DNA of 64,000 bases from Streptomyces sp. PTY087I2 (GTDB lineage: Bacteria > Actinomycetota > Actinomycetes > Streptomycetales > Streptomycetaceae), in the NCBI RefSeq assembly GCF_001687325.1, contig NZ_LZRD01000002.1, positions 1-64,000 on the forward strand. Reading direction: 5' to 3'. This document shows, one piece after another, positions 1 through 40,053 of this stretch (the stretch's first letter is position 1; the number at the start of each line of letters is the position of its first letter). A model generated the notes under the pieces. The model searched no databases and was not told where the DNA came from. It saw only the letters and a list, made by a program, of their open reading frames with translations. The position numbers and the translations under genes were made by a program.

Positions 1-606
1 AACCGGCTTCTTCTTCGCCGCCATGATCCCCTTGAAGGAGGGGTAGCGCGCCTCACCGGACTGGTCGGTCACCGAGACCACCGCCGGCAGCGACGCCTCC
101 AACTGCTCGGTCGCGGTGTCACCGTCACGCCGCCCGGTCACCACACCGTCGTTCACCGACACCTCGGACAGCAGCGTCACCTGCGGCACACCCAGCCGCT
201 CCGCCAGCAACGCCGGCAGCACACCCATCACACCGTCCGTCGAGGCCATACCGCAGATCACCAGGTCATAGCCGGTCTTCTCGACCGCCTTCGCCAGCAC
301 CAGCGACGTACCCATCACATCCGTACCGTGCAGATCGTCGTCCTCGACGTGAACCGCCTTGTCCGCACCCATCGACAACGCCTTGCGCAACGCGTCCTTG
401 GCATCCTCCGGACCCACCGTCACCACGGTGATCTCCGCATCATCAGCCTCGTCCGCGATCTGCAACGCCTGCTCGACCGCGTACTCGTCCAGCTCCGACA
501 ACAGACCGTCGACATCCTCACGGTCCAGCGTCAGGTCATCGGCGAAACGCCGGTCACCGGTCGCGTCGGGCACGTACTTCACACAGACAACGATCCTCAA
601 GCTCAC
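1..606 (-). CDS. etfB: Electron transfer flavoprotein beta subunit (3' end cut by window edge)
   Basis: The reading frame encodes the N-terminal 202 residues of a typical ETF beta subunit (VVCVKYVPD at the start, then the conserved VEDDDLHGTD and ASTDG segments). ETF accepts electrons from acyl-CoA dehydrogenases and passes them to the quinone pool through ETF-quinone oxidoreductase. The start is GTG at 604-606, with AGGAG about 8 bases upstream. The family is about 260 residues long, so roughly 60 residues lie beyond base 1, where etfA would normally follow. Its promoter carries the same paired palindromes as the ccr promoter at 38.25 kb, which fits a role as electron acceptor for the methylsuccinyl-CoA dehydrogenase of that operon. 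The identity is clear; the regulation is inferred. Confidence 0.95.
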   Translation of the reverse strand, partial: MSLRIVVCVKYVPDATGDRRFADDLTLDREDVDGLLSELDEYAVEQALQIADEADDAEITVVTVGPEDAKDALRKALSMGADKAVHVEDDDLHGTDVMGTSLVLAKAVEKTGYDLVICGMASTDGVMGVLPALLAERLGVPQVTLLSEVSVNDGVVTGRRDGDTATEQLEASLPAVVSVTDQSGEARYPSFKGIMAAKKKPV

Positions 607-665
607 GCCGGCTCTCCTGCCTACCTGGGTGTGGTCCCACCTGGGTGTCATTCGTACTGATGAAG

Positions 666-708
666 AGACTATGGCACTCAGTACCCTCTGTAAAGGTACC
701 CAGTGCCA
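666..708 (-). promoter_or_regulatory. etfB promoter with paired TetR-type operators
   Basis: Read leftward, a -35 TTTACA (689-694) and a -10 TAGTCT (666-671) are 17 bases apart. Palindrome 1, GGCACTCAGTACC (673-685), fills the spacer and abuts the -10. Palindrome 2, GGTACCCAGTGCC (695-707), abuts the -35 from upstream. The two sites are 22 bp apart. The same geometry occurs at 1511-1553 and 38253-38294. Operator function is inferred from the repetition and position. Confidence 0.75.
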
Positions 709-739
709 AAATGCCTCTTCCGGTGCTACGTTTCGCCGC
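703..739 (+). promoter_or_regulatory. Probable leaderless promoter of the TetR gene at 740
   Basis: A -10-like TACGTT (727-732) ends seven bases before the ATG at 740, so transcription could begin at the start codon itself. This would explain the lack of a ribosome-binding site there. The -35 would overlap the palindrome at 695-707, implying autoregulation. The -35 match is poor. Confidence 0.4.
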
Positions 740-1501
740 ATGAGCGAGGCGCGAGGACCCGAGAAGAAGGCACCCATGCGGGAGGTGCTGGCGCAGGCGG
801 CCTTCCAGCTCTTCCTGGAGCGGGGCTTCGAGCGGACGACCGTGGACGACATCGTGGCGCGGGCCGGTGTGGGCAGGCGTTCGTTCTTCCGCTACTTCCC
901 GTCGAAGGAGGACGCGGTCTTCCCGGACCATGAGCGCTGCCTCGCCGAGATGACCGAGTTTCTGGCAGCCGCCGACGACAGCGATCCGGTGGGTGCGGTG
1001 TCCGACGCCGCGCGCATCGTGCTGCGGATGTACGCGGCCAACCCCGAGTTCTCCGTACAGCGCTACCGGCTCACCCGGGAGGTGCCCGGACTGCGGACAT
1101 ACGAGCTGTCCGTGGTGCGCCGCTACGAGCAGACGCTCGCCGGTCATCTGCGGAGCCGGTTCGGTGAGGGCGGCGACGGGGCGTTGCGGGCCGAGATGAT
1201 CGCCGCGTCCGTGGTCGCCGCGCACAACAACGGGCTGCGGCTGTGGCTGCGTTCGGGCGGGGAGGGCGACCCCGAGGTGGCCGTCGACCAGGCGCTCGCC
1301 CTGGTGCGCGAGGTGTGGGGGCGGCCTGCCGCCTCCACCGCCCCGGCCGCCTCCGAAGCCTCTGCCGTCCCCGCTGCCCCTGCCGCCCCCTTCACGGTCT
1401 CCGGTGACGGTGACGGTGAGGTGGTCGTGATGGTCGCGCGGAAAGGGACCCCGATGTGGCGCGTCGTGCAGCAGATCGAGGCGGCCGTCGGCGAGAACTG
1501 A
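740..1501 (+). CDS. TetR-family transcriptional regulator
   Basis: 253 residues. The N-terminal TetR helix-turn-helix occupies about residues 15-60, with the recognition helix around GVGRRSFFRYF, followed by a mainly helical ligand domain. A low-complexity Ala/Pro linker (about residues 195-220) leads to a 30-residue C-terminal tail ending in VVQQIEAAVGEN. The regulator at 39238-40053 has the same layout, a near-identical recognition helix and a similar tail, so the two are paralogues. The gene sits between two promoters carrying GGCACTCAGTGCC-like palindromes and is the best candidate for the protein that binds them. The ligand is unknown; an acyl-CoA would fit the target genes. ATG 740 is preferred as a leaderless start; ATG 776, with GAAGG upstream, is the alternative. 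Confidence 0.85.
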   Translation: MSEARGPEKKAPMREVLAQAAFQLFLERGFERTTVDDIVARAGVGRRSFFRYFPSKEDAVFPDHERCLAEMTEFLAAADDSDPVGAVSDAARIVLRMYAANPEFSVQRYRLTREVPGLRTYELSVVRRYEQTLAGHLRSRFGEGGDGALRAEMIAASVVAAHNNGLRLWLRSGGEGDPEVAVDQALALVREVWGRPAASTAPAASEASAVPAAPAAPFTVSGDGDGEVVVMVARKGTPMWRVVQQIEAAVGEN

Positions 1502-1510
1502 GTATCAATG

Positions 1511-1553
1511 GGCACTCAGTGCCTTTACTGTCCGGCACTCAGTGCCATATGGT
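1511..1553 (+). promoter_or_regulatory. DUF35-gene promoter with two perfect operator palindromes
   Basis: Two perfect copies of GGCACTCAGTGCC lie at 1511-1523 and 1534-1546, 23 bp apart. A -35-like TTTACT (1524-1529) starts immediately after the first copy. The second copy fills the 18-base spacer up to a -10-like TATGGT (1548-1553). The arrangement is the same as at the etfB and ccr promoters. Confidence 0.75.
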
Positions 1554-1611: not shown

Positions 1612-1998
1612 GTGTCCCAGACAGGTATGGGTACCGTCCAGAAGGCGCACGAGGAGTGCGGCCTTGCCTACCACCGCTGCCGCTGGTGCGGCACCGCCTC
1701 CTTCCGGCGGCTGCTGTGCCCGGTGTGCGCGTCCAGTGAACTGGAGCCCGAACGCACCACCGGCCACGGCGTGGTCGTCCGGACCGCCGTGATCCACCGC
1801 TACACCGAGGCGGCTCGCAACGAGTCCCTGGTCCGGTTCCCCGAGGGTTTCGTCTTCCGCTGCCAGGTCGTCGGGGCCGCGCCGCAGATGGTGACGGTCG
1901 GCGCCCGGGTGAAGCCCCTGGCCGGTGAGGAGCCGGAGTCGTCGGGGGCGGTCGTCCTGGAACTCTGCGAGCCGCCCGCCCAGCGGGACTGGGTCTGA
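1612..1998 (+). CDS. DUF35 zinc-ribbon/OB-fold protein
   Basis: 128 residues from GTG 1612, chosen for the AGGGGG seven bases upstream. An N-terminal rubredoxin-like zinc ribbon has Cys22-x2-Cys25 and Cys35-x2-Cys38. The rest resembles the OB-fold domain of the DUF35 (ChsH2-like) family. Members partner with thiolases, hydratases or amidohydrolase-like proteins acting on acyl-CoAs. Downstream on the other strand lies a decayed amidohydrolase, a family often found beside DUF35 genes, so this locus may have lost a partner. The promoter has two perfect copies of the palindrome shared with etfB and ccr, suggesting a role in the same acyl-CoA metabolism. The substrate is unknown. Confidence 0.75.
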   Translation: MSQTGMGTVQKAHEECGLAYHRCRWCGTASFRRLLCPVCASSELEPERTTGHGVVVRTAVIHRYTEAARNESLVRFPEGFVFRCQVVGAAPQMVTVGARVKPLAGEEPESSGAVVLELCEPPAQRDWV

Positions 1999-31933: not shown

Positions 31934-33139
31934 TCAGCCCTGGAATCGGTACTCCTCCAAGAGGCGCCGGCCAATGATCATTTTCTGGATCTCGGCGGTA
32001 CCTTCACCGATCAGCAGCATCGGCGCCTCGCGGTAGAGGCGCTCGATCTCGTACTCCTTGGAGAAGCCGTAGCCGCCGTGGATACGGAAGGCGTCCTCGA
32101 CGACTTCCTTGCAGTACTCGGAGGCGAGGTACTTCGCCATCCCTGCCTCCAGGTCGTTTCGTTCCCCGGAGTCCTTTTTGCGTGCCGCATTCACCATCAT
32201 CGCATGAGCGGCCTCGACCTTGGTGGCCATTTCGGCCAGTTTGAACTGGATCGCCTGGTGCTGGGCGATCGGCTTGCCGAAGGTGTGGCGCTGCTGGGCG
32301 TACGAAACGCCCAGTTCAAATGCACGCTGCGCGACACCGCAGCCACGCGCGGCGACATTCACCCGGCCGACTTCGACGCCGTCCATCATTTGGTAAAACC
32401 CTCGGCCCGTCGTGCCCCCGAGGACGCGATTGGCCGGAATGCGCAGGTCGTCCATGATGAGCTCGGTCGTGTCGACGCCCTTGTAGCCCATCTTGTCGAT
32501 CTTCCCGGGGATGGTCAGACCGGGCCGGACCTCTCCGAAACCGGGCTCCTTCTCCACCAGGAAGGTCGTCATCGACTTGTGCGGCGCGGTCCCCTCGGGG
32601 TGGCCTTCGTCACTTCGGCAGAGAACGGCCACCAAAGTGGACGTTCCGCCGTTCGTTAGCCACATCTTCTGGCCGTTGAGAACGTACTCGTCGCCCTCCT
32701 TCACACCCTTCGACGAGATCGCCGAGACGTCCGAGCCGAGCGCCGGCTCGGACATCGAGAAGGCCCCGCGCACCTCACCGAGCGCCATCCGCGGCAGGAA
32801 CGTGTCCTTCTGCTCCTGCGTGCCGTGCTGCTTGAGCATGTAGGCCACGATGAAATGCGTGTTGATGATGCCCGACACGCTCATCCAGCCACGCGCGATC
32901 TCCTCCACGCACAGCGCGTAGGTGAGCAGCGACTCACCCAGCCCCCCGTACTCCTCGGGGATCATCAGCCCGAACAGGCCGAGTTCCTTGAGCCCCTCGA
33001 CGATTTCCGTCGGGTACTCGTCGCGGTGCTCCAGCTGGGTCGCGACCGGAATGATCTCCTTGTCGACGAAATCCCGGACCGTGGAAAGGATTTCCCGCTG
33101 GATGTCGTTCAGACCGGCGGTCTGGGCGAGTCGCGTCAT
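31934..33139 (-). CDS. mcd: Acyl-CoA dehydrogenase, probable methylsuccinyl-CoA dehydrogenase
   Basis: 401 residues, a normal-length flavin acyl-CoA dehydrogenase: FSMSEPALGSD and WLTNGG line the FAD site, and the C-terminal region REAPMLLIGEGTAEIQ is typical. It is the last gene of the ccr-ecm-mcl-mch-mcd series, so it should oxidise methylsuccinyl-CoA to mesaconyl-CoA in the EMC pathway. Proteobacterial Mcd is, as I recall, considerably longer, so this is a shorter form. It needs ETF as acceptor; etfB at the left edge shares the operon's operator motif. Substrate is inferred from operon position. Confidence 0.85.
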   Translation of the reverse strand: MTRLAQTAGLNDIQREILSTVRDFVDKEIIPVATQLEHRDEYPTEIVEGLKELGLFGLMIPEEYGGLGESLLTYALCVEEIARGWMSVSGIINTHFIVAYMLKQHGTQEQKDTFLPRMALGEVRGAFSMSEPALGSDVSAISSKGVKEGDEYVLNGQKMWLTNGGTSTLVAVLCRSDEGHPEGTAPHKSMTTFLVEKEPGFGEVRPGLTIPGKIDKMGYKGVDTTELIMDDLRIPANRVLGGTTGRGFYQMMDGVEVGRVNVAARGCGVAQRAFELGVSYAQQRHTFGKPIAQHQAIQFKLAEMATKVEAAHAMMVNAARKKDSGERNDLEAGMAKYLASEYCKEVVEDAFRIHGGYGFSKEYEIERLYREAPMLLIGEGTAEIQKMIIGRRLLEEYRFQG

Positions 33140-33188
33140 GGCTGCTTCTCCTGTGGCTTCACGCGGATGGCCTTAAGGCTTCACACGG

Positions 33189-33692
33189 TTACTTGGCGGG
33201 CGTCGGGCGGCCGGGCTGCTCGCCGCCGCGCTCCTTGATGTACGTCTCGGTGGGGACCATCACCTTGCGCCGGAACACACAGACGACCGTGCCGTCCTGC
33301 TTGTAGCCCTTGGTCTCCACGTAGACGATGCCGCGGTCGTTCTTGGACTTCGACGGGGTCTTGTCCAGCACGGTCGTCTCGCCGTAGATCGTGTCGCCGT
33401 GGAAGGTCGGCGCGATGTGCTTGAGCGATTCGACCTCCAGATTGGCGATGGCCTTTCCGGAGACGTCCGGCACCGACATGCCGAGCAGCAGCGAGTAGAT
33501 GTAGTTGCCGACGACGACGTTCTTTCCGAAGTCGGTCGTCTTCTCCGCGTAGTTGCTGTCCATGTGCAGCGGGTGGTGATTCATGGTCAGCAGACAGAAG
33601 AGGTGGTCGTCGTATTCCGTGACCGTCTTTCCGGGCCAGTGCTTGTAGACGGCACCGACCTCGAACTCCTCATACGTGCGTCCGAACTGCAT
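33189..33692 (-). CDS. mch: MaoC-like dehydratase, probable mesaconyl-CoA hydratase
   Basis: 167 residues, one hot-dog-fold MaoC domain; NHHPLHMD carries the hydratase His/Asp motif. It starts two bases after the stop codon of the CitE-like gene. In the EMC pathway this step hydrates mesaconyl-CoA to methylmalyl-CoA, the substrate of the lyase encoded just upstream. Rhodobacter Mch is, as I recall, a double-domain protein, so this one probably works as a dimer. Confidence 0.85.
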   Translation of the reverse strand: MQFGRTYEEFEVGAVYKHWPGKTVTEYDDHLFCLLTMNHHPLHMDSNYAEKTTDFGKNVVVGNYIYSLLLGMSVPDVSGKAIANLEVESLKHIAPTFHGDTIYGETTVLDKTPSKSKNDRGIVYVETKGYKQDGTVVCVFRRKVMVPTETYIKERGGEQPGRPTPAK

Positions 33693-33694
33693 GA

Positions 33695-34669
33695 TCAGGC
33701 CTCCGGGGCTTCGAACTTGGACGTGCGCTGCATTCCGGCGGCCCGGCCCTTGCCCGCGATGACGAGCGCCATCTTGCGGCTGGCCTCGTCGATCATCTCG
33801 TCGCCGAGCATCGCGGAGCCCTTCTTGCCGCCCTCCTCGGAGGTGCACCAGTCATACGCGTCGAGGATCAGCTCGGCGTGGTCGTAGTCTTCCTGCGAGG
33901 GCGAGAACACCTCGTTCGCCGCGTCGACCTGGCCCGGGTGCAGCACCCACTTGCCGTCGAAGCCGAGGGCGGCGGCGCGGCCGGCCACCTCGCGGTAGGC
34001 GTCCACGTCACGGATCTGGAGGAACGGGCCGTCGATCGCCTGGAGGTCGTGGCTGCGGGCCGCCATCAGGATGCGCATCAGGATGTAGTGGTAGGCGTCC
34101 GCCGGGTAGCCGGGCGGCTGCTGGCCGACGACCAGGGTCTTCATATTGATCGACGCCATGAAGTCGGCCGGGCCGAAGATCAGCGTCTCCAGGCGCGGCG
34201 AGGCCTGGGCGATCTCGTCGATGTTCACCAGACCCTTGGCGTTCTCGATCTGCGCCTCGATGCCGATCTTCCCGACTTCAAAGCCCATCGTCTTCTCGAT
34301 CTGGGTCAGCAGCAGGTCCAGCGCCACGACCTGCTGGGCGTCCTGGACCTTCGGCAGCATGATGCAGTCGAGGTTCGGACCCGCGCCCTCGACGACCGTG
34401 ATGACGTCCCGGTACGTCCAGTGCGTCGTCCAGTCGTTGACCCGCACGACCCGGGTCTTGCCGCTCCAGTCACCGTTGTTCAGCGCGTCCACGATGTGGT
34501 GGCGGGCGCCCTCCTTGGCGAGCGGCGCGCAGGCGTCCTCCAGGTCCAGGAAGACCTGGTCGGCCGGGAGGCCCTGGGCCTTCTCCAGGAAGCGCGGGTT
34601 GGAGCCCGGCACGGCCAGACACGAACGGCGCGGGCGCAGACGGTTGACCGAGGGGGTGGGCGTGGTCAT
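33695..34669 (-). CDS. mcl1: CitE-like lyase, probable (methyl)malyl-CoA lyase
   Basis: 324 residues, HpcH/HpaI aldolase/citrate-lyase superfamily. RSCLAVPGSNPRFLEK, FLDLEDACAP (metal-binding) and IEAQIENAKGL are diagnostic, with GKWVLHPGQ near the C-terminus. It should split methylmalyl-CoA into propionyl-CoA and glyoxylate. The ATG overlaps the ecm stop codon by four bases. Confidence 0.87.
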   Translation of the reverse strand: MTTPTPSVNRLRPRRSCLAVPGSNPRFLEKAQGLPADQVFLDLEDACAPLAKEGARHHIVDALNNGDWSGKTRVVRVNDWTTHWTYRDVITVVEGAGPNLDCIMLPKVQDAQQVVALDLLLTQIEKTMGFEVGKIGIEAQIENAKGLVNIDEIAQASPRLETLIFGPADFMASINMKTLVVGQQPPGYPADAYHYILMRILMAARSHDLQAIDGPFLQIRDVDAYREVAGRAAALGFDGKWVLHPGQVDAANEVFSPSQEDYDHAELILDAYDWCTSEEGGKKGSAMLGDEMIDEASRKMALVIAGKGRAAGMQRTSKFEAPEA

Positions 34670-36678
34670 GCGGGGACCTCCAGAGGGTCGAGCTTGTTCG
34701 CTTTCCGGATCTCGTCGACGATACGGCCGATGATCTCCGTGATGCCGAAGTCCTTCGGGGTGAAGACGGCGGCCACTCCGGCTTCGATGAGTGCGGTGGC
34801 GTCGGCCGGCGGGATGATGCCGCCCGCGATCACCGGGATGTCCGGCGCCCCGGCCTCGCGCAGCCGGTGCAGCACGTCGGGGACCAGCTCCGCGTGCGAG
34901 CCGGACAGGATGGACAGGCCCACGCAGTGCACGTCCTCGGCCAGCGCCGCGTCGGTGATCTGCTCGGGGGTCAGCCGGATCCCCTGGTAGACCACCTCGA
35001 ACCCGGCGTCCCTGGCCCGTACGGCGATCTGCTCGGCCCCGTTGGAGTGCCCGTCCAGGCCCGGCTTGCCGACCAGCAGACGCAGTCGCCCGACACCCAG
35101 GTCGGCGGCGGTCCGGGTGACCTTCTCGCGGACCAGGGCGAGCGTGCTGCCCGGCTCCGCGGTGACCGCGACCGGGGCCGAGGAGACCCCGGTGGGCGCG
35201 CGGAACTCGCCGAAGACGTCCCGCAGCGCCCAGGACCACTCGCCGGTGGTGACACCCGCGCGGGCGCACTCGACGGTGGCTTCCATCATGTTCTCGGTGC
35301 CCGCGGCGGCCTTCTTCAGCGCGGCCAGCGCCTCCGACGCCCGCGCCTCGTCGCGGTTGTCCCGCCACTCGTGCAGGGCCGCCACGACCCGGGCCTCGTT
35401 CTCGGGGTCGACGGTCATGATCGCCCCGTCGAGGTCGGAGGTGAGCGGGTTGGGCTCGGTGGACTCGTAGATGTTGACGCCGACGATCTTCTCGTCGCCC
35501 GCCTCGATCCGGGCCCGCCGGGCCGCGTGCGAGGAGACCAGCTCGGACTTGAGATAGCCGGACTCGACGGCCGCCATCGCGCCGCCCATCTGCTGGATCC
35601 GGTCGATCTCCGCGAGCGACTCCTCGACCAGGGTGTCCACCTTGGCCTCGACGACATGCGAACCGGCGAAGATGTCCTCGTACTCCAGCAGATCGCTCTC
35701 GTGCGCCAGCACCTGCTGGATCCGCAGCGACCACTGCTGGTCCCAGGGCCGGGGCAGCCCCAGCGCCTCGTTCCAGGCCGGCAGCTGCACCGCGCGGGCC
35801 CGGGCGTCCTTGGAGAGGGTGACGGCCAGCATCTCCAGGACGATGCGCTGGACGTTGTTCTCCGGCTGCGCCTCGGTCAGGCCGAGGGAGTTGACCTGGA
35901 CGCCGTAGCGGAAGCGGCGCTGCTTGGCATTGGTGATGCCGTACCGCTCGCGGGTGACGCGGTCCCAGATACGGCCGAAGGCGCGCATCTTGCACATCTC
36001 CTCGATGAAGCGGACGCCCGCGTTCACGAAGAACGAGATGCGGGCGACCACGTCACCGAACTTCTCCTCGGGCACCTGGCCCGAGTCGCGGACCGCGTCG
36101 AGCACCGCGATGGCGGTCGACATGGCGTACGCGATCTCCTGGACCGGGGTGGCCCCCGCCTCCTGGAGGTGGTAGCTACAAATGTTGATCGGGTTCCACT
36201 TGGGGATGCGGTTGACCGTGTACGTGATCATGTCGGTGGTCAGCCGCAGCGAGGGCACCGGCGGGAAGACGTGCGTCCCGCGCGAGAGGTACTCCTTCAC
36301 GATGTCGTTCTGCGTCGTCCCCTGGAGCTTGGAGGTGTCGGCCCCCTGCTCCTCCGCGACCACCTGGTAGAGCGCCAGCAGCCACATGGCGGTCGCGTTG
36401 ATCGTCATCGAGGTGTTCATCTGCTCCAGGGGGATGTCCTGGAACAGCCGCCGCATGTCACCGAGGTGCGAGACGGGAACACCGACACGGCCCACCTCGC
36501 CGCGGGCGAGAATGTGGTCCGGGTCGTATCCGGTCTGCGTCGGCAGATCGAAGGCGACCGACAGACCCGTCTGGCCCTTGGCGAGGTTGCGGCGGTACAG
36601 CTCGTTGGACGCCTCGGCGGTCGAGTGACCGGCGTACGTCCGCATGAGCCAGGGCCGGTCCTTCTGACGTTCGTTCAT
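34666..36678 (-). CDS. ecm: Ethylmalonyl-CoA mutase (MeaA)
   Basis: 670 residues in one chain: an N-terminal mutase barrel (YAGHSTAEASNELYRRN, TGLSVAFDLPTQ) and a C-terminal B12-binding domain with DGHSNGAEQ and GLSILSGSH. The MeaA-type sequence without a small partner subunit distinguishes it from methylmalonyl-CoA mutase. It converts ethylmalonyl-CoA to methylsuccinyl-CoA using adenosylcobalamin. It starts nine bases after ccr; the epimerase of the pathway is not in this operon. Confidence 0.93.
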   Translation of the reverse strand: MNERQKDRPWLMRTYAGHSTAEASNELYRRNLAKGQTGLSVAFDLPTQTGYDPDHILARGEVGRVGVPVSHLGDMRRLFQDIPLEQMNTSMTINATAMWLLALYQVVAEEQGADTSKLQGTTQNDIVKEYLSRGTHVFPPVPSLRLTTDMITYTVNRIPKWNPINICSYHLQEAGATPVQEIAYAMSTAIAVLDAVRDSGQVPEEKFGDVVARISFFVNAGVRFIEEMCKMRAFGRIWDRVTRERYGITNAKQRRFRYGVQVNSLGLTEAQPENNVQRIVLEMLAVTLSKDARARAVQLPAWNEALGLPRPWDQQWSLRIQQVLAHESDLLEYEDIFAGSHVVEAKVDTLVEESLAEIDRIQQMGGAMAAVESGYLKSELVSSHAARRARIEAGDEKIVGVNIYESTEPNPLTSDLDGAIMTVDPENEARVVAALHEWRDNRDEARASEALAALKKAAAGTENMMEATVECARAGVTTGEWSWALRDVFGEFRAPTGVSSAPVAVTAEPGSTLALVREKVTRTAADLGVGRLRLLVGKPGLDGHSNGAEQIAVRARDAGFEVVYQGIRLTPEQITDAALAEDVHCVGLSILSGSHAELVPDVLHRLREAGAPDIPVIAGGIIPPADATALIEAGVAAVFTPKDFGITEIIGRIVDEIRKANKLDPLEVPA

Positions 36679-36687
36679 CGGGGAACC

Positions 36688-38025
36688 TCAGACGTTGCGG
36701 AAGCGGTTGATGGCGTCGATGTGCTGCTCGCGCATTTCCTGGTCGCGCACGCCCAGACCCTCGCGGGGGGCCAGGGCGAGGACGCCGACCTTGCCCTGGT
36801 GGAGGTTGCGGTGGACGTCGTACGCGGCCTGGCCGGTGTCCTCCAGGGAGTACGTCTTGGAGAGCGTCGGGTGGATCTTGCCCTTGGCGATGAGGCGGTT
36901 GGCCTCCCAGGCCTCGCGGTAGTTGGCGAAGTGGGAGCCGATGATGCGCTTGAGGGACATCCACAGGTAGCGGTTGTCGTACTCGTGCATGTAGCCCGAG
37001 GTGGAGGCGCAGGTGGTGATGGTGCCGCCCTTGCGGGTGACGTAGACCGAGGCGCCGAAGGTCTCACGGCCCGGGTGCTCGAAGACGATGTCGATGTCCT
37101 CGCCGCCGGTGAACTCGCGGATGCGCTTGCCGAAGCGCTTCCACTCCTTCGGATCCTGGGTGCGCTCGTCCTTCCAGAACTTGTAACCCTCGGCGTTGCG
37201 GTCGATGACCGCCTCCGCGCCCATCGAGCGGCAGATCTCGGCCTTCTCCGGGCTGGAGACGACACAGATCGGGTTGGCGCCGCCGGCCAGCGCGAACTGG
37301 GTGGCGTAGGAGCCGAGCCCGCCGCTGGCGCCCCAGATCAGCACGTTGTCGCCCTGCTTCATGCCCGCGCCGTTGCGCGAGACGAGCTGGCGGTACGCGG
37401 TCGAGTTGACCAGGCCCGGAGCCGCGGCCTCCTCCCAGCTGAGGTGCTTCGGCTTCGGCATCAGCTGGTTGGACTTGACGAGGGCGATCTCCGCCAGGCC
37501 GCCGAAGTTCGTCTCGAAGCCCCAGATGCGCTGCTCGGGGTCGAGCATGGTGTCGTTGTGGCCGTCGGAGGACTCCAGCTCGACGGAGAGGCAGTGCGCG
37601 ACGACCTCGTCGCCCGGGTTCCAGGCGTTCACGCCGGGGCCGGTGCGCAGGACGACGCCCGCCAGGTCGGAGCCGATGACGTGGTACGGCAGGTCGTGGC
37701 GCTTGGTGAGCTCGCTGAGCTTCCCGTACCGCTCCAGGAAGTTGAAGGTCGAGACCGGCTCGAAGATGGACGTCCAGACGGAGTTGTAATTCACCGAGCT
37801 GGCCATCACGGCGACGAGGGCCTCGCCGGGGCCGAGTTCGGGGACCGGGACGTCGTCGAGGTGGATCGACTTGCGGGGGTCCTTGTCGCGGGTCTCCAGA
37901 CCGGCGAACATCTCCGCCTCGTCCTTGTGCACGGTGATGGCGCGGTAGGACTCGGGGAGGGACAGGGCAGCGAAGTCCGCGGCCGTGCTGTCCTGCGACT
38001 GAATCGCGTCCAGGATTTCCTTCAC
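36688..38025 (-). CDS. ccr: Crotonyl-CoA carboxylase/reductase
   Basis: 445 residues from GTG 38025 (GGAGG upstream). A medium-chain dehydrogenase with NADPH loop WGASGGLGS. With this start, Asn81, Phe170, Glu171 and His365 fall at exactly the numbers I recall for the CO2-binding residues of the Kitasatospora setae enzyme, which supports both the start and true carboxylase activity. It makes ethylmalonyl-CoA from crotonyl-CoA, CO2 and NADPH, opening the EMC pathway, and also supplies extender units for polyketides. It is the first gene of the operon; its promoter is at 38253-38294 with a structured leader between. Confidence 0.96.
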   Translation of the reverse strand: MKEILDAIQSQDSTAADFAALSLPESYRAITVHKDEAEMFAGLETRDKDPRKSIHLDDVPVPELGPGEALVAVMASSVNYNSVWTSIFEPVSTFNFLERYGKLSELTKRHDLPYHVIGSDLAGVVLRTGPGVNAWNPGDEVVAHCLSVELESSDGHNDTMLDPEQRIWGFETNFGGLAEIALVKSNQLMPKPKHLSWEEAAAPGLVNSTAYRQLVSRNGAGMKQGDNVLIWGASGGLGSYATQFALAGGANPICVVSSPEKAEICRSMGAEAVIDRNAEGYKFWKDERTQDPKEWKRFGKRIREFTGGEDIDIVFEHPGRETFGASVYVTRKGGTITTCASTSGYMHEYDNRYLWMSLKRIIGSHFANYREAWEANRLIAKGKIHPTLSKTYSLEDTGQAAYDVHRNLHQGKVGVLALAPREGLGVRDQEMREQHIDAINRFRNV

Positions 38026-38171
38026 GGTGTTGCCTCCGGTGATGCGGCGTCGAGGGAACGCTTGAGGGGCCCTGCTGGCAGGGGAGTGGTGCGGTGTGGA
38101 GGTGTTGCCGTCGGTTCGGCAGGTGGAGCTGGCTTTGCTCGGTGGAGCAAGAAGGTGCCTGTGACGCAGGC

Positions 38172-38246
38172 GTCCGGGCGCGCAGCACGGTGGTTGCGGG
38201 GACAGCCGGCACACGTGTGAGTTCCCAGCACGCCGGCCGCCCGGAC
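38172..38246 (-). promoter_or_regulatory. Structured 5' leader of the ccr operon
   Basis: From the predicted start site near 38246, the RNA would begin GTCCGGGCG, which pairs perfectly with CGCCCGGAC at 38172-38180. Inside, two GCCGGC segments can pair around ACACGTGT. The leader to the start codon is about 220 bases. No known riboswitch consensus, including the cobalamin class, was matched. About 145 unremarkable bases remain between this structure and ccr. Confidence 0.4.
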
Positions 38247-38252
38247 ACCTTC

Positions 38253-38294
38253 AACGTATGGCACTCCGTGACACCTGACAAGGCACCCAGTGCC
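38253..38294 (-). promoter_or_regulatory. ccr operon promoter with paired TetR-type operators
   Basis: Leftward -35 TTGTCA (38276-38281) and -10 TACGTT (38253-38258) are 17 bases apart. GGCACTCCGTGAC (38260-38272) fills the spacer; GGCACCCAGTGCC (38282-38294) abuts the -35 from upstream. The two palindromes are 22 bp apart, exactly as at the etfB promoter. Confidence 0.78.
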
Positions 38295-38379
38295 AACAAT
38301 TTCTCTCACTTGTCATCTCGTGGGCACGCATGAGCAACACGATGGGCGTTACGAGACGTTCTGTCCTGCTGGCAGGCGG

Positions 38380-39237: not shown

Positions 39238-40053
39238 TCAGCGCTCTTTGAGCGCCTGCTGGATCGTCCGCATGACCTCGTCCAGCGGGGCGTCCGTACG
39301 CGCCACCGCGACGAGCACCTCGCCGTCCGTGGTCACCGAGGCGGCCGGGGTGCGCTCGGGCTCGGTCTGCGCGGTCCGGCCGGCCCCGATGCCCGTGCCG
39401 AAGGTGTCGCGCACGATGGCGAAGGCCCGGTCGAGCTGGGCCTCCACATCGCCCTGGCCGCCCGCCCGCAGCCAGCGGCGCAGCACATGGTTGTGCGCGG
39501 TGACGACGGCGGACGCGGCGACCTCCGCGAGCAGCGGGTCGTCGTTGCCCACATGGTGGTCGCGCTCGTCGAAGTGGCCCAGGAGATAGCGGGTGAACAG
39601 CCGCTCGTAGCGGGCCACCGACGCGATCTCGGCCTCCCGGAGGGTCGGCACTTCGCGGGTGAGCTTGTAACGGGCCACGGAGACGGCGGGCTTCGCCGCG
39701 TACATCTTCATGACTTCCTTGATGCCGCGGCAGACGGTGTCGAGCGGGTGCTCGTGCGCGGGGGCCGCGTTCAGGACGGCCTCGGCCCTGACGAGGGTGT
39801 CGTCGTGGTCCGGGAAGATGGCCTCTTCCTTGGAGCGGAAGTGGCGGAAGAAGGTCCGGCGGGCCACGCCCGCGGCGCCCGCGATCTCGTCGACGGTCGT
39901 CGCCTCGTAGCCCTTCGTGGCGAAGAGTTCCATCGCGGCGGCGGCCAGTTCGCGGCGCATCTTGAGCCGTTGGGCGGCCGCGCGCGTTCCCGCGGTGGTC
40001 TCCGGGGCGTCGGTCGCGGCGGTGGCACGGGGTGACTTGGCGGGCTGGGACAT
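39238..40053 (-). CDS. TetR-family transcriptional regulator (paralogue of the one at 740)
   Basis: 271 residues from ATG 40053. HTH region TTVDEIAGAAGVARRTFF differs little from the regulator at 740, and both share KLTREVP with flanking residues, an Ala/Pro/Thr linker and a tail with GEV-VAR and a final amphipathic helix. It is encoded between the EMC operon and the 3-hydroxyacyl-CoA dehydrogenase. A -10-like TACGTT (40060-40065) ends six bases before the ATG, so the mRNA is probably leaderless. It is a second candidate for binding GGCACTCAGTGCC; none of that motif was seen at its own promoter. Confidence 0.88.
   Translation of the reverse strand: MSQPAKSPRATAATDAPETTAGTRAAAQRLKMRRELAAAAMELFATKGYEATTVDEIAGAAGVARRTFFRHFRSKEEAIFPDHDDTLVRAEAVLNAAPAHEHPLDTVCRGIKEVMKMYAAKPAVSVARYKLTREVPTLREAEIASVARYERLFTRYLLGHFDERDHHVGNDDPLLAEVAASAVVTAHNHVLRRWLRAGGQGDVEAQLDRAFAIVRDTFGTGIGAGRTAQTEPERTPAASVTTDGEVLVAVARTDAPLDEVMRTIQQALKER

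What the first reader, a model, noticed from the sequence alone, without database searches (positions are those of the whole stretch)
666..1553. Three promoters share paired GGCACTCAGTGCC palindromes in a fixed geometry
The sequence shows two 13-bp palindromes at etfB (673-685, 695-707), two perfect ones at the DUF35 gene (1511-1523, 1534-1546) and two at ccr 37 kb away (38260-38272, 38282-38294). Within each pair the spacing is 22-23 bp. One palindrome abuts the -35 from upstream and the other fills the spacer up to the -10. Three independent promoters with the same layout is hard to explain by chance. It suggests one TetR-type repressor controlling an acyl-CoA regulon I do not recognise as described.
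Basis: partly seen in the sequence, partly recalled or inferred. Interest (0 to 1): 0.88.

Follow-up and report, generated by a model that had tools for sequence, protein, structure and literature searches.

The report
Paired-operator acetyl-CoA gene switch in Streptomyces
In this Streptomyces-type genome and most relatives examined, the same pair of short palindromic DNA sites lies before genes for acetyl-CoA and acyl-CoA metabolism, and two sister TetR proteins likely bind these pairs and would keep some of the genes switched off.

Summary
Pairs of 13-bp palindromes 22-23 bp apart lie at 673/695, 1511/1534 and 38260/38282, sandwich a -35 hexamer and reach the -10. A profile of relatives' etfB/DUF35 pairs, without ccr sites, finds only these three places in the own 8.16-Mb genome at E 0.1. 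A core model adds a fourth, upstream of aceE (pyruvate dehydrogenase E1), on another contig. All 57 top ccr-model hits in 61 genomes of the genus lie 188-306 bp upstream of ccr; 49 of 50 aceE upstream regions carry the pair.
The one-repressor reading is partly supported. Two sister TetRs (46% identical) share the code. The ccr and aceE pairs occur with or without TetR1, so TetR2, beside ccr, is their likely regulator. Etf/DUF35-type pairs track TetR1 (28 of 34 genomes with it, 2 of 27 without); 0 of 27 etfB loci lacking TetR1 have a pair. The exceptions leave cross-recognition open.
Closest described regulator: mycobacterial MftR (GGCA-N5-TGCC, acyl-CoA), whose tested effector residues are not conserved here. 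No binding was tested; my capped paper listings show no such regulon.

The parts
1..606 (-). etfB, 5' 202 codons (contig edge cuts the rest); second, near-identical copy of a housekeeping etfB on contig C58
   Evidence: Pfam ETF 8.8e-40; 99.7% nt identity to C58 over 618 bp
666..671 (-). -10 hexamer TAGTCT of etfB (predicted)
   Evidence: 17-bp spacer to the -35
673..685 (.). proximal palindrome of the etfB pair (GGCACTCAGTACC)
   Evidence: profile hit 664-712, E 1e-13 (model contains near-identical relatives)
689..694 (-). -35 hexamer TTTACA of etfB (predicted)
   Evidence: TTTAC nearly invariant in the 71-row alignment A1
695..707 (.). distal palindrome of the etfB pair (GGTACCCAGTGCC)
740..1501 (+). 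TetR1, divergent to etfB; MftR-like TetR with a conserved C-terminal extension
   Evidence: TetR_N 9.8e-16, TetR_C_14 3.7e-08; matches of 60% identity or more in 34 of 61 genomes, own included
1511..1523 (.). distal palindrome of the DUF35 pair (perfect)
   Evidence: profile hit 1507-1557, E 3.1e-14 (model contains near-identical relatives)
1524..1529 (+). -35 hexamer TTTACT (predicted)
1534..1546 (.). proximal palindrome of the DUF35 pair (perfect)
1548..1553 (+). -10 hexamer TATGGT (predicted)
1612..1998 (+). DUF35 / ChsH2-like zinc-ribbon OB-fold protein
   Evidence: zf-ChsH2 1.6e-4, OB_ChsH2_C 6.6e-4, both below the curated cut-off
36688..38025 (-). ccr, crotonyl-CoA carboxylase/reductase, first gene of the ethylmalonyl-CoA pathway region
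   Evidence: TIGR01751, 641.9 bits against cut-off 378.6
38253..38258 (-). -10 hexamer TACGTT of ccr (predicted)
   Evidence: ATACGTTGA invariant in the 24-row alignment A2
38260..38272 (.). proximal palindrome of the ccr pair (GGCACTCCGTGAC)
   Evidence: R1 hit 38251-38300, E 1.5e-6, model built without ccr sites
38276..38281 (-). -35 hexamer TTGTCA of ccr (predicted)
   Evidence: TTG invariant in A2
38282..38294 (.). distal palindrome of the ccr pair (GGCACCCAGTGCC)
39238..40053 (-). TetR2, paralogue of TetR1 (46% identity); likely regulator of ccr and aceE
   Evidence: TetR_N 1.2e-16; 46% match; alignments
31934..36678 (-). rest of the ethylmalonyl-CoA region: mutase (34669-36678), mesaconyl-CoA hydratase-like (33192-33848) and acyl-CoA dehydrogenase (31937-33139); a gene between 33848 and 34669 was not examined
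   Evidence: Pfam

Best explanation
The three pairs are conserved paired palindromes that two sister TetR proteins, TetR1 (740-1501) and TetR2 (39238-40053), likely bind as two dimers per pair, so that they would cover the -35 and reach the -10 and repress etfB, the DUF35 gene and the ccr operon. Shown here: the pairs, their spacing and overlap with -35/-10-like hexamers, their conservation, and their near-absence elsewhere in the genome. Inferred: TetR1 controls the divergent second etfBA copy (and itself) and the DUF35 gene, while TetR2 controls the ccr (ethylmalonyl-CoA) operon and also acts at aceE, the pyruvate dehydrogenase E1 gene, where the pair begins about 170-260 bp upstream of the start and the sign of control is open. 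Inferred: an acyl-CoA releases the proteins. The 22-23 bp spacing, about two helical turns, would put the two dimers on the same face of the DNA.
For: (1) R1, built from relatives' etf/DUF35 pairs without ccr sites, finds three places in the own genome at E 0.1 or better, the third being the ccr pair (strict filters; for the first two the model holds near-identical relatives, so only the ccr hit is an independent test). (2) Pairs in 82 of 82 TetR1-type loci, 69 of them with two (loci fetched by TetR1 similarity, so related and partly redundant). (3) R2, built from 24 ccr pairs including the own one: its 57 best hits (E 1.5e-8 or better, one per genome, 61 genomes) all lie 188-306 bp upstream of a ccr on the same strand; of the 14 ccr copies without one, 12 are second copies and 2 lie at contig edges. 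(4) Strong etf/DUF35-type hit (E below 4e-9) in 28 of 34 genomes with TetR1 and 2 of 27 without; 0 of 27 etfB loci without TetR1, although 25 of those 27 genomes have a TetR2-type gene. (5) aceE pair in 49 of 50 upstream regions, own genome included. (6) Recognition helices nearly identical, with four class-fixed differences (G45/A64, S48/T67, Y52/H71, P54/R73; 99-100% in 85 and 37 sequences), and sites of two slightly different classes. (7) Both TetRs match MftR best among named families, and MftR's published palindrome is GGCA-N5-TGCC (PMC8728441 section 5). (8) In S. tsukubaensis ccr1 was below the quantification limit in glucose/dextrin medium (PMC4606968 passages), as expected of a repressed operon.
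Against: No binding or expression data. G027 and G043 keep a DUF35 pair without TetR1, so TetR2 or another TetR may read that class too. Six of 34 TetR1 genomes lack a strong R1 hit other than ccr: G004, G015, G025 and G041 have only weak, partial ones (E about 0.01), G055 an intermediate one (8.7e-5), G045 none. The aceE pair does not overlap a recognisable -35/-10, so plain repression need not hold there, and one of 50 regions (G051) lacks it. A TetR2-type gene occurs in 59 of 61 genomes, so the TetR2-ccr link rests on adjacency and elimination, not on co-loss; G037 keeps a TetR2-like gene without ccr or pair. Related genomes are not independent counts.
Confidence: 0.68

Rival explanations
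1. One master TetR (TetR2) binds all pairs, and TetR1 only autoregulates or fine-tunes the etfB/DUF35 sites.
For: DUF35 pairs without TetR1 in G027 and G043; the core AC-N3-G(T) is shared by all classes; the DNA-reading helices are almost the same.
Against: No etfB pair where TetR1 is absent, 0 of 27 loci, although 25 of these 27 genomes have a TetR2-type gene; site classes and helices show parallel differences.
Confidence: 0.2
2. Another regulator, not TetR1 or TetR2, binds the pairs, and their proximity to tetR genes is incidental.
For: Nothing was tested biochemically; the own genome has at least 22 TetR-like matches at E 0.001 (44 of 116 candidates scored).
Against: Every one of 82 TetR1-type loci holds a pair, the etf-type pairs follow TetR1 presence, and the sites match the operator of the closest described family member, MftR.
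Confidence: 0.08
3. The proteins act as activators from the pairs, as CcrR is reported to do in the ethylmalonyl-CoA pathway of Methylobacterium.
For: The title of the CcrR paper, seen only in a reference list, says that it activates transcription; the aceE pair lies upstream of any recognisable promoter.
Against: In etfB, DUF35 and ccr the proximal palindrome fills the -35/-10 spacer, where a bound dimer should block polymerase.
Confidence: 0.12
4. Chance palindromes in GC-rich DNA.
For: Single 13-mers are not enriched.
Against: Pairs are absent from shuffles at the stringency of the window's pairs and paired-site matches occur across the family: 91 of 101 genomes, 13 of 17 genera.
Confidence: 0.01

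Closest known systems
MftR of mycobacteria (TetR family, mycofactocin operon; PMC8728441: abstract, passages and section 5 seen)
   Same: Best named family match of both TetRs; operator palindrome GGCA-N5-TGCC; TetR1 model close to 2rae and 8x0a.
   Different: Below the MftR equivalog cut-off (94.8 and 91.3 of 224.9 bits); one 27-bp operator instead of two spaced palindromes; different targets; extra C-terminal segment beyond the 190-residue MftR profile; effector residue His68 corresponds to Cys67 (TetR1) and Thr86 (TetR2), and Asp16 to Glu15 and Arg34.
CcrR of Methylobacterium extorquens (TetR, ethylmalonyl-CoA pathway; only its reference entry seen)
   Same: A TetR acting on the ethylmalonyl-CoA pathway.
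   Different: Reported as an activator, in a proteobacterium; its sequence and site were not compared here.
AccR of Streptomyces avermitilis (TetR repressor of short-chain acyl-CoA genes; seen in passages of review PMC10933834)
   Same: A Streptomyces TetR controlling acyl-CoA genes through a palindrome.
   Different: Site GTTAA-N6-TTAAC and targets accD1A1-hmgL-fadE4, echA8, echA9, fadE2: different sequence and genes.
SCO6474 of S. coelicolor (TetR gene close to sco6475, FadB-like; PMC7324645 passages)
   Same: Same neighbourhood as TetR2, which lies beside a 3-hydroxyacyl-CoA dehydrogenase gene; the equation is by synteny and recall, not by sequence.
   Different: The passages seen give it no site or function; its expression was unchanged on SCO3201 over-expression.

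Membership tests
TetR family of repressors | N-terminal TetR_N helix-turn-helix domain | tested here: met
   PF00440 57.7 and 60.7 bits, cut-off 24
TetR family of repressors | all-helical TetR fold | tested here: met
   TetR1 only: AlphaFold2 pLDDT 85; Foldseek best hits 2dg7, 2rae, SCO3201, MftR. TetR2 was not modelled
TetR family of repressors | repression by binding its operator | not testable with these tools
   no binding or expression data
MftR | score above the NCBIfam equivalog cut-off | tested here: not met
   94.8 and 91.3 of 224.9 bits
MftR | operator GGCA-N5-TGCC | tested here: met
   exact in the window's two DUF35 sites and the distal ccr site; the other three window sites and many relatives' sites deviate in one or two of these eight bases
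MftR | acyl-CoA-contacting residues His68 and Asp16 | tested here: not met
   Cys67/Thr86 and Glu15/Arg34 in ungapped alignment to 2RAE; D16R abolished detectable oleoyl-CoA binding in MftR. Mapping to M. smegmatis numbering is by motif and spacing
MftR | gene beside a mycofactocin cluster | not tested
   neighbours in the window are etfB/DUF35 and a GNAT-type gene, ccr and hbd; mft genes were not searched for
AccR-type regulator | site GTTAA-N6-TTAAC | tested here: not met
   the sites are GGCAC-N3-GTGCC-like
CcrR (Methylobacterium) | sequence and site similarity to CcrR | not tested
   no CcrR sequence or site was fetched

The most novel reading that the evidence does not exclude
A Streptomycetaceae-wide acetyl-CoA switch: TetR2, reading paired GGCAC-N3-GTGCC operators, sets both the making of acetyl-CoA (aceE) and its anaplerotic use (ccr, ethylmalonyl-CoA pathway). 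Its duplicate TetR1 inherited the operator code and captured a second etfBA copy, whose coding sequence is kept nearly identical to the housekeeping copy by gene conversion while only its promoter differs.
Probability: 0.45. Interest if true: 0.75.

Novelty: new member of a known kind. Interest (0 to 1): 0.63.

Why it matters
The ethylmalonyl-CoA pathway and pyruvate dehydrogenase help to set the supply of acetyl-CoA and of ethylmalonyl-CoA and methylmalonyl-CoA, polyketide building blocks of Streptomyces (general knowledge). The passages I saw of the S. tsukubaensis emc paper describe the operon as medium-dependent without naming a Streptomyces regulator (PMC4606968). A defined paired operator with a candidate repressor beside it makes that question testable with one deletion and one gel shift, and would offer a handle on precursor supply. 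The two paralogues, with parallel differences in recognition helix and site, are a candidate natural case of operator-code divergence after duplication.

Tried and rejected
Single 13-mers as evidence: rejected, not above chance. Three lone exact 13-mers on contigs C12, C15 and C31 have no partner and are not counted as targets. A single repressor for all sites: not excluded, but disfavoured by the etfB result. MftR membership: rejected on score and effector residues, although the DNA code agrees. Weak R2 hits at G036:C2:238905 and G048:C5:18270 (orthologous; HTH-cupin and aldolase-type neighbours in L282), G040, G041, G059, G018 and G030, and weak R1 hits at G006, G016, G020, G031, G038 and G053: read, mostly half-sites, lone or degraded pairs, not counted as targets. 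Weak R3 hits such as G027:C1:2633805, G010:C2:4382229, G115:C1:4454295 and G131:C2:73109, and further matches that cut from their lists, were not looked at, so more targets in some species are possible. Of the own genome's 10 R3 matches at E 0.5 the list shows seven rows, all at the four named places; the others were cut from view. Three further aceE-like copies at 73-75% identity (G020, G027, G034) and the second aceE type were not examined. Outside the genus, in the class sample, 8 genomes matched at E 0.02, one (G118) below 0.001 with 20-bp spacing; not counted. Structure: the AlphaFold model of TetR1 gives a TetR fold; the C-terminal extension (two short strands and a helix) has lower confidence than the core and no assigned role. 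Literature: all ten searches used; the exact 13-mer gave no paper; several listings show only the top 8-20 of up to 154 papers, in an open-access library, so absence from print is not established. PMC13118837 and PMC9107242 were looked into by passages: neither gives this site or regulator.

Full report
What is there. Six palindromes of 13 bp form three pairs: 673-685/695-707 between divergent etfB and tetR1, 1511-1523/1534-1546 before a DUF35 (ChsH2-like) gene, and 38260-38272/38282-38294 before ccr. Reading in the direction of etfB, DUF35 and ccr, each pair has the order palindrome, -35 (TTTACA, TTTACT, TTGTCA), 3-4 bp, palindrome, -10 (TAGTCT, TATGGT, TACGTT) with spacers of 17, 18 and 17 bp. 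So the stated layout is confirmed. The hexamers are predictions from sequence; no start site was mapped.

Chance. The single motif with mismatches is no more frequent than expected (29 against 39.9 in shuffles of the window; 105 against 101 for the reversed control genome-wide, forward strand). Pairs are: with 3 or fewer total mismatches and 22-23 bp spacing the window has 3 and 150 shuffles have 0; with 5 or fewer, 3 against 3 in all 150 shuffles together. In 82 loci fetched by TetR1 similarity (412 kb; relatives, partly the same species twice) the spacings 22 and 23 hold 80 and 71 pairs and no other spacing from 14 to 40 exceeds 16; every locus has at least one pair and 69 have two.

Genome-wide. 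Model R1 was built from 71 etf/DUF35-type pairs of relatives, none of them a ccr site and none from the window, though near-identical relatives are in it. In the own genome it finds, at E 0.1 or better and with strict filters, only 1507-1557, 664-712 and, at E 1.5e-6, the ccr pair. The ccr hit is the independent one: one promoter class predicts the other. R1 does not see the aceE pair described below. Model R2 (24 ccr pairs, the own one included) was run on 61 genomes of the genus; its 57 best hits, one per genome and E 1.5e-8 or better, each lie 188-306 bp upstream of a ccr match on the same strand. Fourteen of 71 ccr copies lack one: 12 are second copies (their context was not examined; one lies at a contig edge) and two (G008, G050) begin 99-173 bp from a contig edge. 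G010 and G037 have no ccr at the threshold.

A fourth target. R2's weaker hits recurred at one orthologous place, the region upstream of aceE, pyruvate dehydrogenase E1 (the 436-residue N-terminal part in L272 scores 630 bits to TIGR00759), with a GntR/FCD-type regulator gene and an E2-like gene nearby in L272. In one search aceE of this type (74% identity or more, best copy) was found in 55 of 61 genomes; the other six have only a second type (60-64%). I examined 50 upstream regions: 49 have the pair, 48 of them at 22 bp and one at 21 bp; the miss is G051. Four more (G036, G039, G054, G058) show it; G050 was not examined. In the 30 loci measured the pair begins 169-257 bp before the aceE match. 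The own genome has it on contig C68 (GTCACTCCGTGCC-9-GGCACCCCATGCC), and core model R3 scores it at E 1.1e-5. R3 was built from aceE, ccr and etf-type pairs together and contains the own aceE and ccr pairs. The criterion used for aceE gives no pair in the window other than the three and, in 194.6 kb of etfB loci, only the two at the TetR1 locus of G023. At aceE the pair is not wrapped round a recognisable promoter and is followed by a GATCGATCATCGATC-type palindrome, so the mode of action may differ there.

Which protein. TetR1 and TetR2 are 46% identical. TetR1 matches of 60% identity or more occur in 34 of 61 genomes, own included; TetR2-type matches (45-51% to TetR1) occur in 59 of 61, two of them partial or with an in-frame stop; G008 and G050, both fragmented, show none. 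Strong etf/DUF35-type R1 hits (E below 4e-9) occur in 28 of 34 genomes with TetR1 and 2 of 27 without (Fisher 2.5e-9, but genomes are related, so this is a description and not a test). Of the six TetR1 genomes without one, G004, G015, G025 and G041 have only weak partial hits, G055 an intermediate one, and G045 only the ccr hit. In TetR1-lacking genomes none of 27 etfB loci (26 genomes; G010 twice, G050 without a match) has a pair. The ccr and aceE pairs are there with or without TetR1. The simplest reading is TetR1 for etfB/tetR1 and DUF35, and TetR2, next to ccr, for ccr and aceE. Against a strict split, G027 and G043 keep a DUF35 pair with no TetR1 orthologue in the search.

Code and helix. 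In 111 etf/DUF35-type pairs the proximal site has T at position 6 and A at position 8 (98% and 95%) and tolerates C, T or A at position 3; in 24 ccr pairs both sites have invariant C3 and G11, and the proximal site has G at position 6 (96%) and mostly A at position 2. In 85 TetR1 and 37 TetR2 sequences the recognition helices differ at four positions fixed in each group (G45/A64, S48/T67, Y52/H71, P54/R73; 99-100%) within an otherwise identical stretch, residues 42-57 of TetR1. That these differences cause the site difference is inference.

Relation to known regulators. The best named family is MftR, below its cut-off; the nearest solved folds of the TetR1 model include 2rae (called R. jostii MftR in PMC8728441) and M. 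tuberculosis MftR 8x0a. MftR's published conserved palindrome, T-N2-GGCA-N5-TGCC-N2-A, contains the core seen here, and long-chain acyl-CoAs are its effectors (PMC8728441, abstract, passages and section 5). Its His68 and Asp16 correspond to Cys67 and Glu15 in TetR1 and to Thr86 and Arg34 in TetR2; in MftR, D16R left oleoyl-CoA binding undetectable. So I keep an acyl-CoA effector as a prediction and do not claim MftR's ligand or membership.

The second etfBA. etfB beside TetR1 is a second copy. In five further genomes with both copies in view (G005, G019, G023, G052, G057) 1.8-1.95 kb is 97-100% identical between the copies, and identity ends 12-22 bp upstream of the start codon; the housekeeping copy has a different conserved upstream region. 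Third codon positions of the 606 nt compared are 97.5-100% identical within a genome and 72-84% in the best comparison between genomes, in six genomes including the own one. That is the pattern of gene conversion or repeated duplication. In G015 and G025 a weaker pair (R1 E about 0.01) lies at the called 5' end of an acyl-CoA dehydrogenase gene followed by a second etfB, which again ties the operator to electron-transfer flavoprotein supply.

Range. R3 at E 0.001 matches 91 of 101 genomes of the family, in 13 of 17 genera. In the class sample of 118 genomes, 16 matched at E 0.02: 8 of the genus and 8 others, only one of the latter (G118) below 0.001 and with 20-bp spacing. Within these samples and with strict filters the system looks confined to this family; named relatives are Streptomyces and one Actinacidiphila.

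Function. The window shows ccr followed by mutase, hydratase-like and acyl-CoA dehydrogenase genes, like the emc operon that S. tsukubaensis needs for growth on acetate and that was below the quantification limit in glucose/dextrin medium (PMC4606968 passages). Repression lifted when acyl-CoA intermediates rise would fit; it was not tested.

Noticed in passing
window 1-618; G000:C58:1023-1640 (L209): The window's etfB is a near-identical second copy of a housekeeping etfB; copies within a genome are 99.2-100% identical over the 606 nt compared and 88-91% at best between the six genomes, suggesting gene conversion.
   Followed up: yes
L209 773-1021 and 1023-1640: Contig C58 repeats a 249-bp piece of etfB next to the full 5' part; probably an assembly artefact of the duplicated etfBA, which may also explain the contig edge at window position 1.
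   Followed up: partly
L338 845-879 (own genome, contig C68): Paired site upstream of aceE followed by a conserved TTTGATCGATCATCGATC palindrome, possibly the site of the neighbouring GntR/FCD-type regulator.
   Followed up: partly
window 1421-1498 and 39241-39318: Both TetRs carry a conserved C-terminal segment after a variable linker (two short strands and a helix in the TetR1 model), beyond the end of the 190-residue MftR profile; it might help two dimers on a pair to cooperate.
   Followed up: partly
L135-L156, upstream of etfB: Most housekeeping etfB genes have their own strongly conserved, different upstream region (TCACAG...TGTACTGRCGAGTAAYAT... and GGCGCCTATGCTGC).
   Followed up: no
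L207 5733-7018 and L208: G010 has two identical etfB copies, one beside yet another TetR of this group (46-49% identity), but no paired site there by the criterion.
   Followed up: no
L301 1739-1774 (G010): G010 has no ccr at the search threshold but keeps a proximal half of the ccr-type promoter downstream of its TetR2 gene.
   Followed up: partly
window 38026-38252: About 220 bases lie between the predicted ccr -10 and the ccr start; the site-to-gene distance is 188-306 bp in the 57 genomes measured.
   Followed up: no
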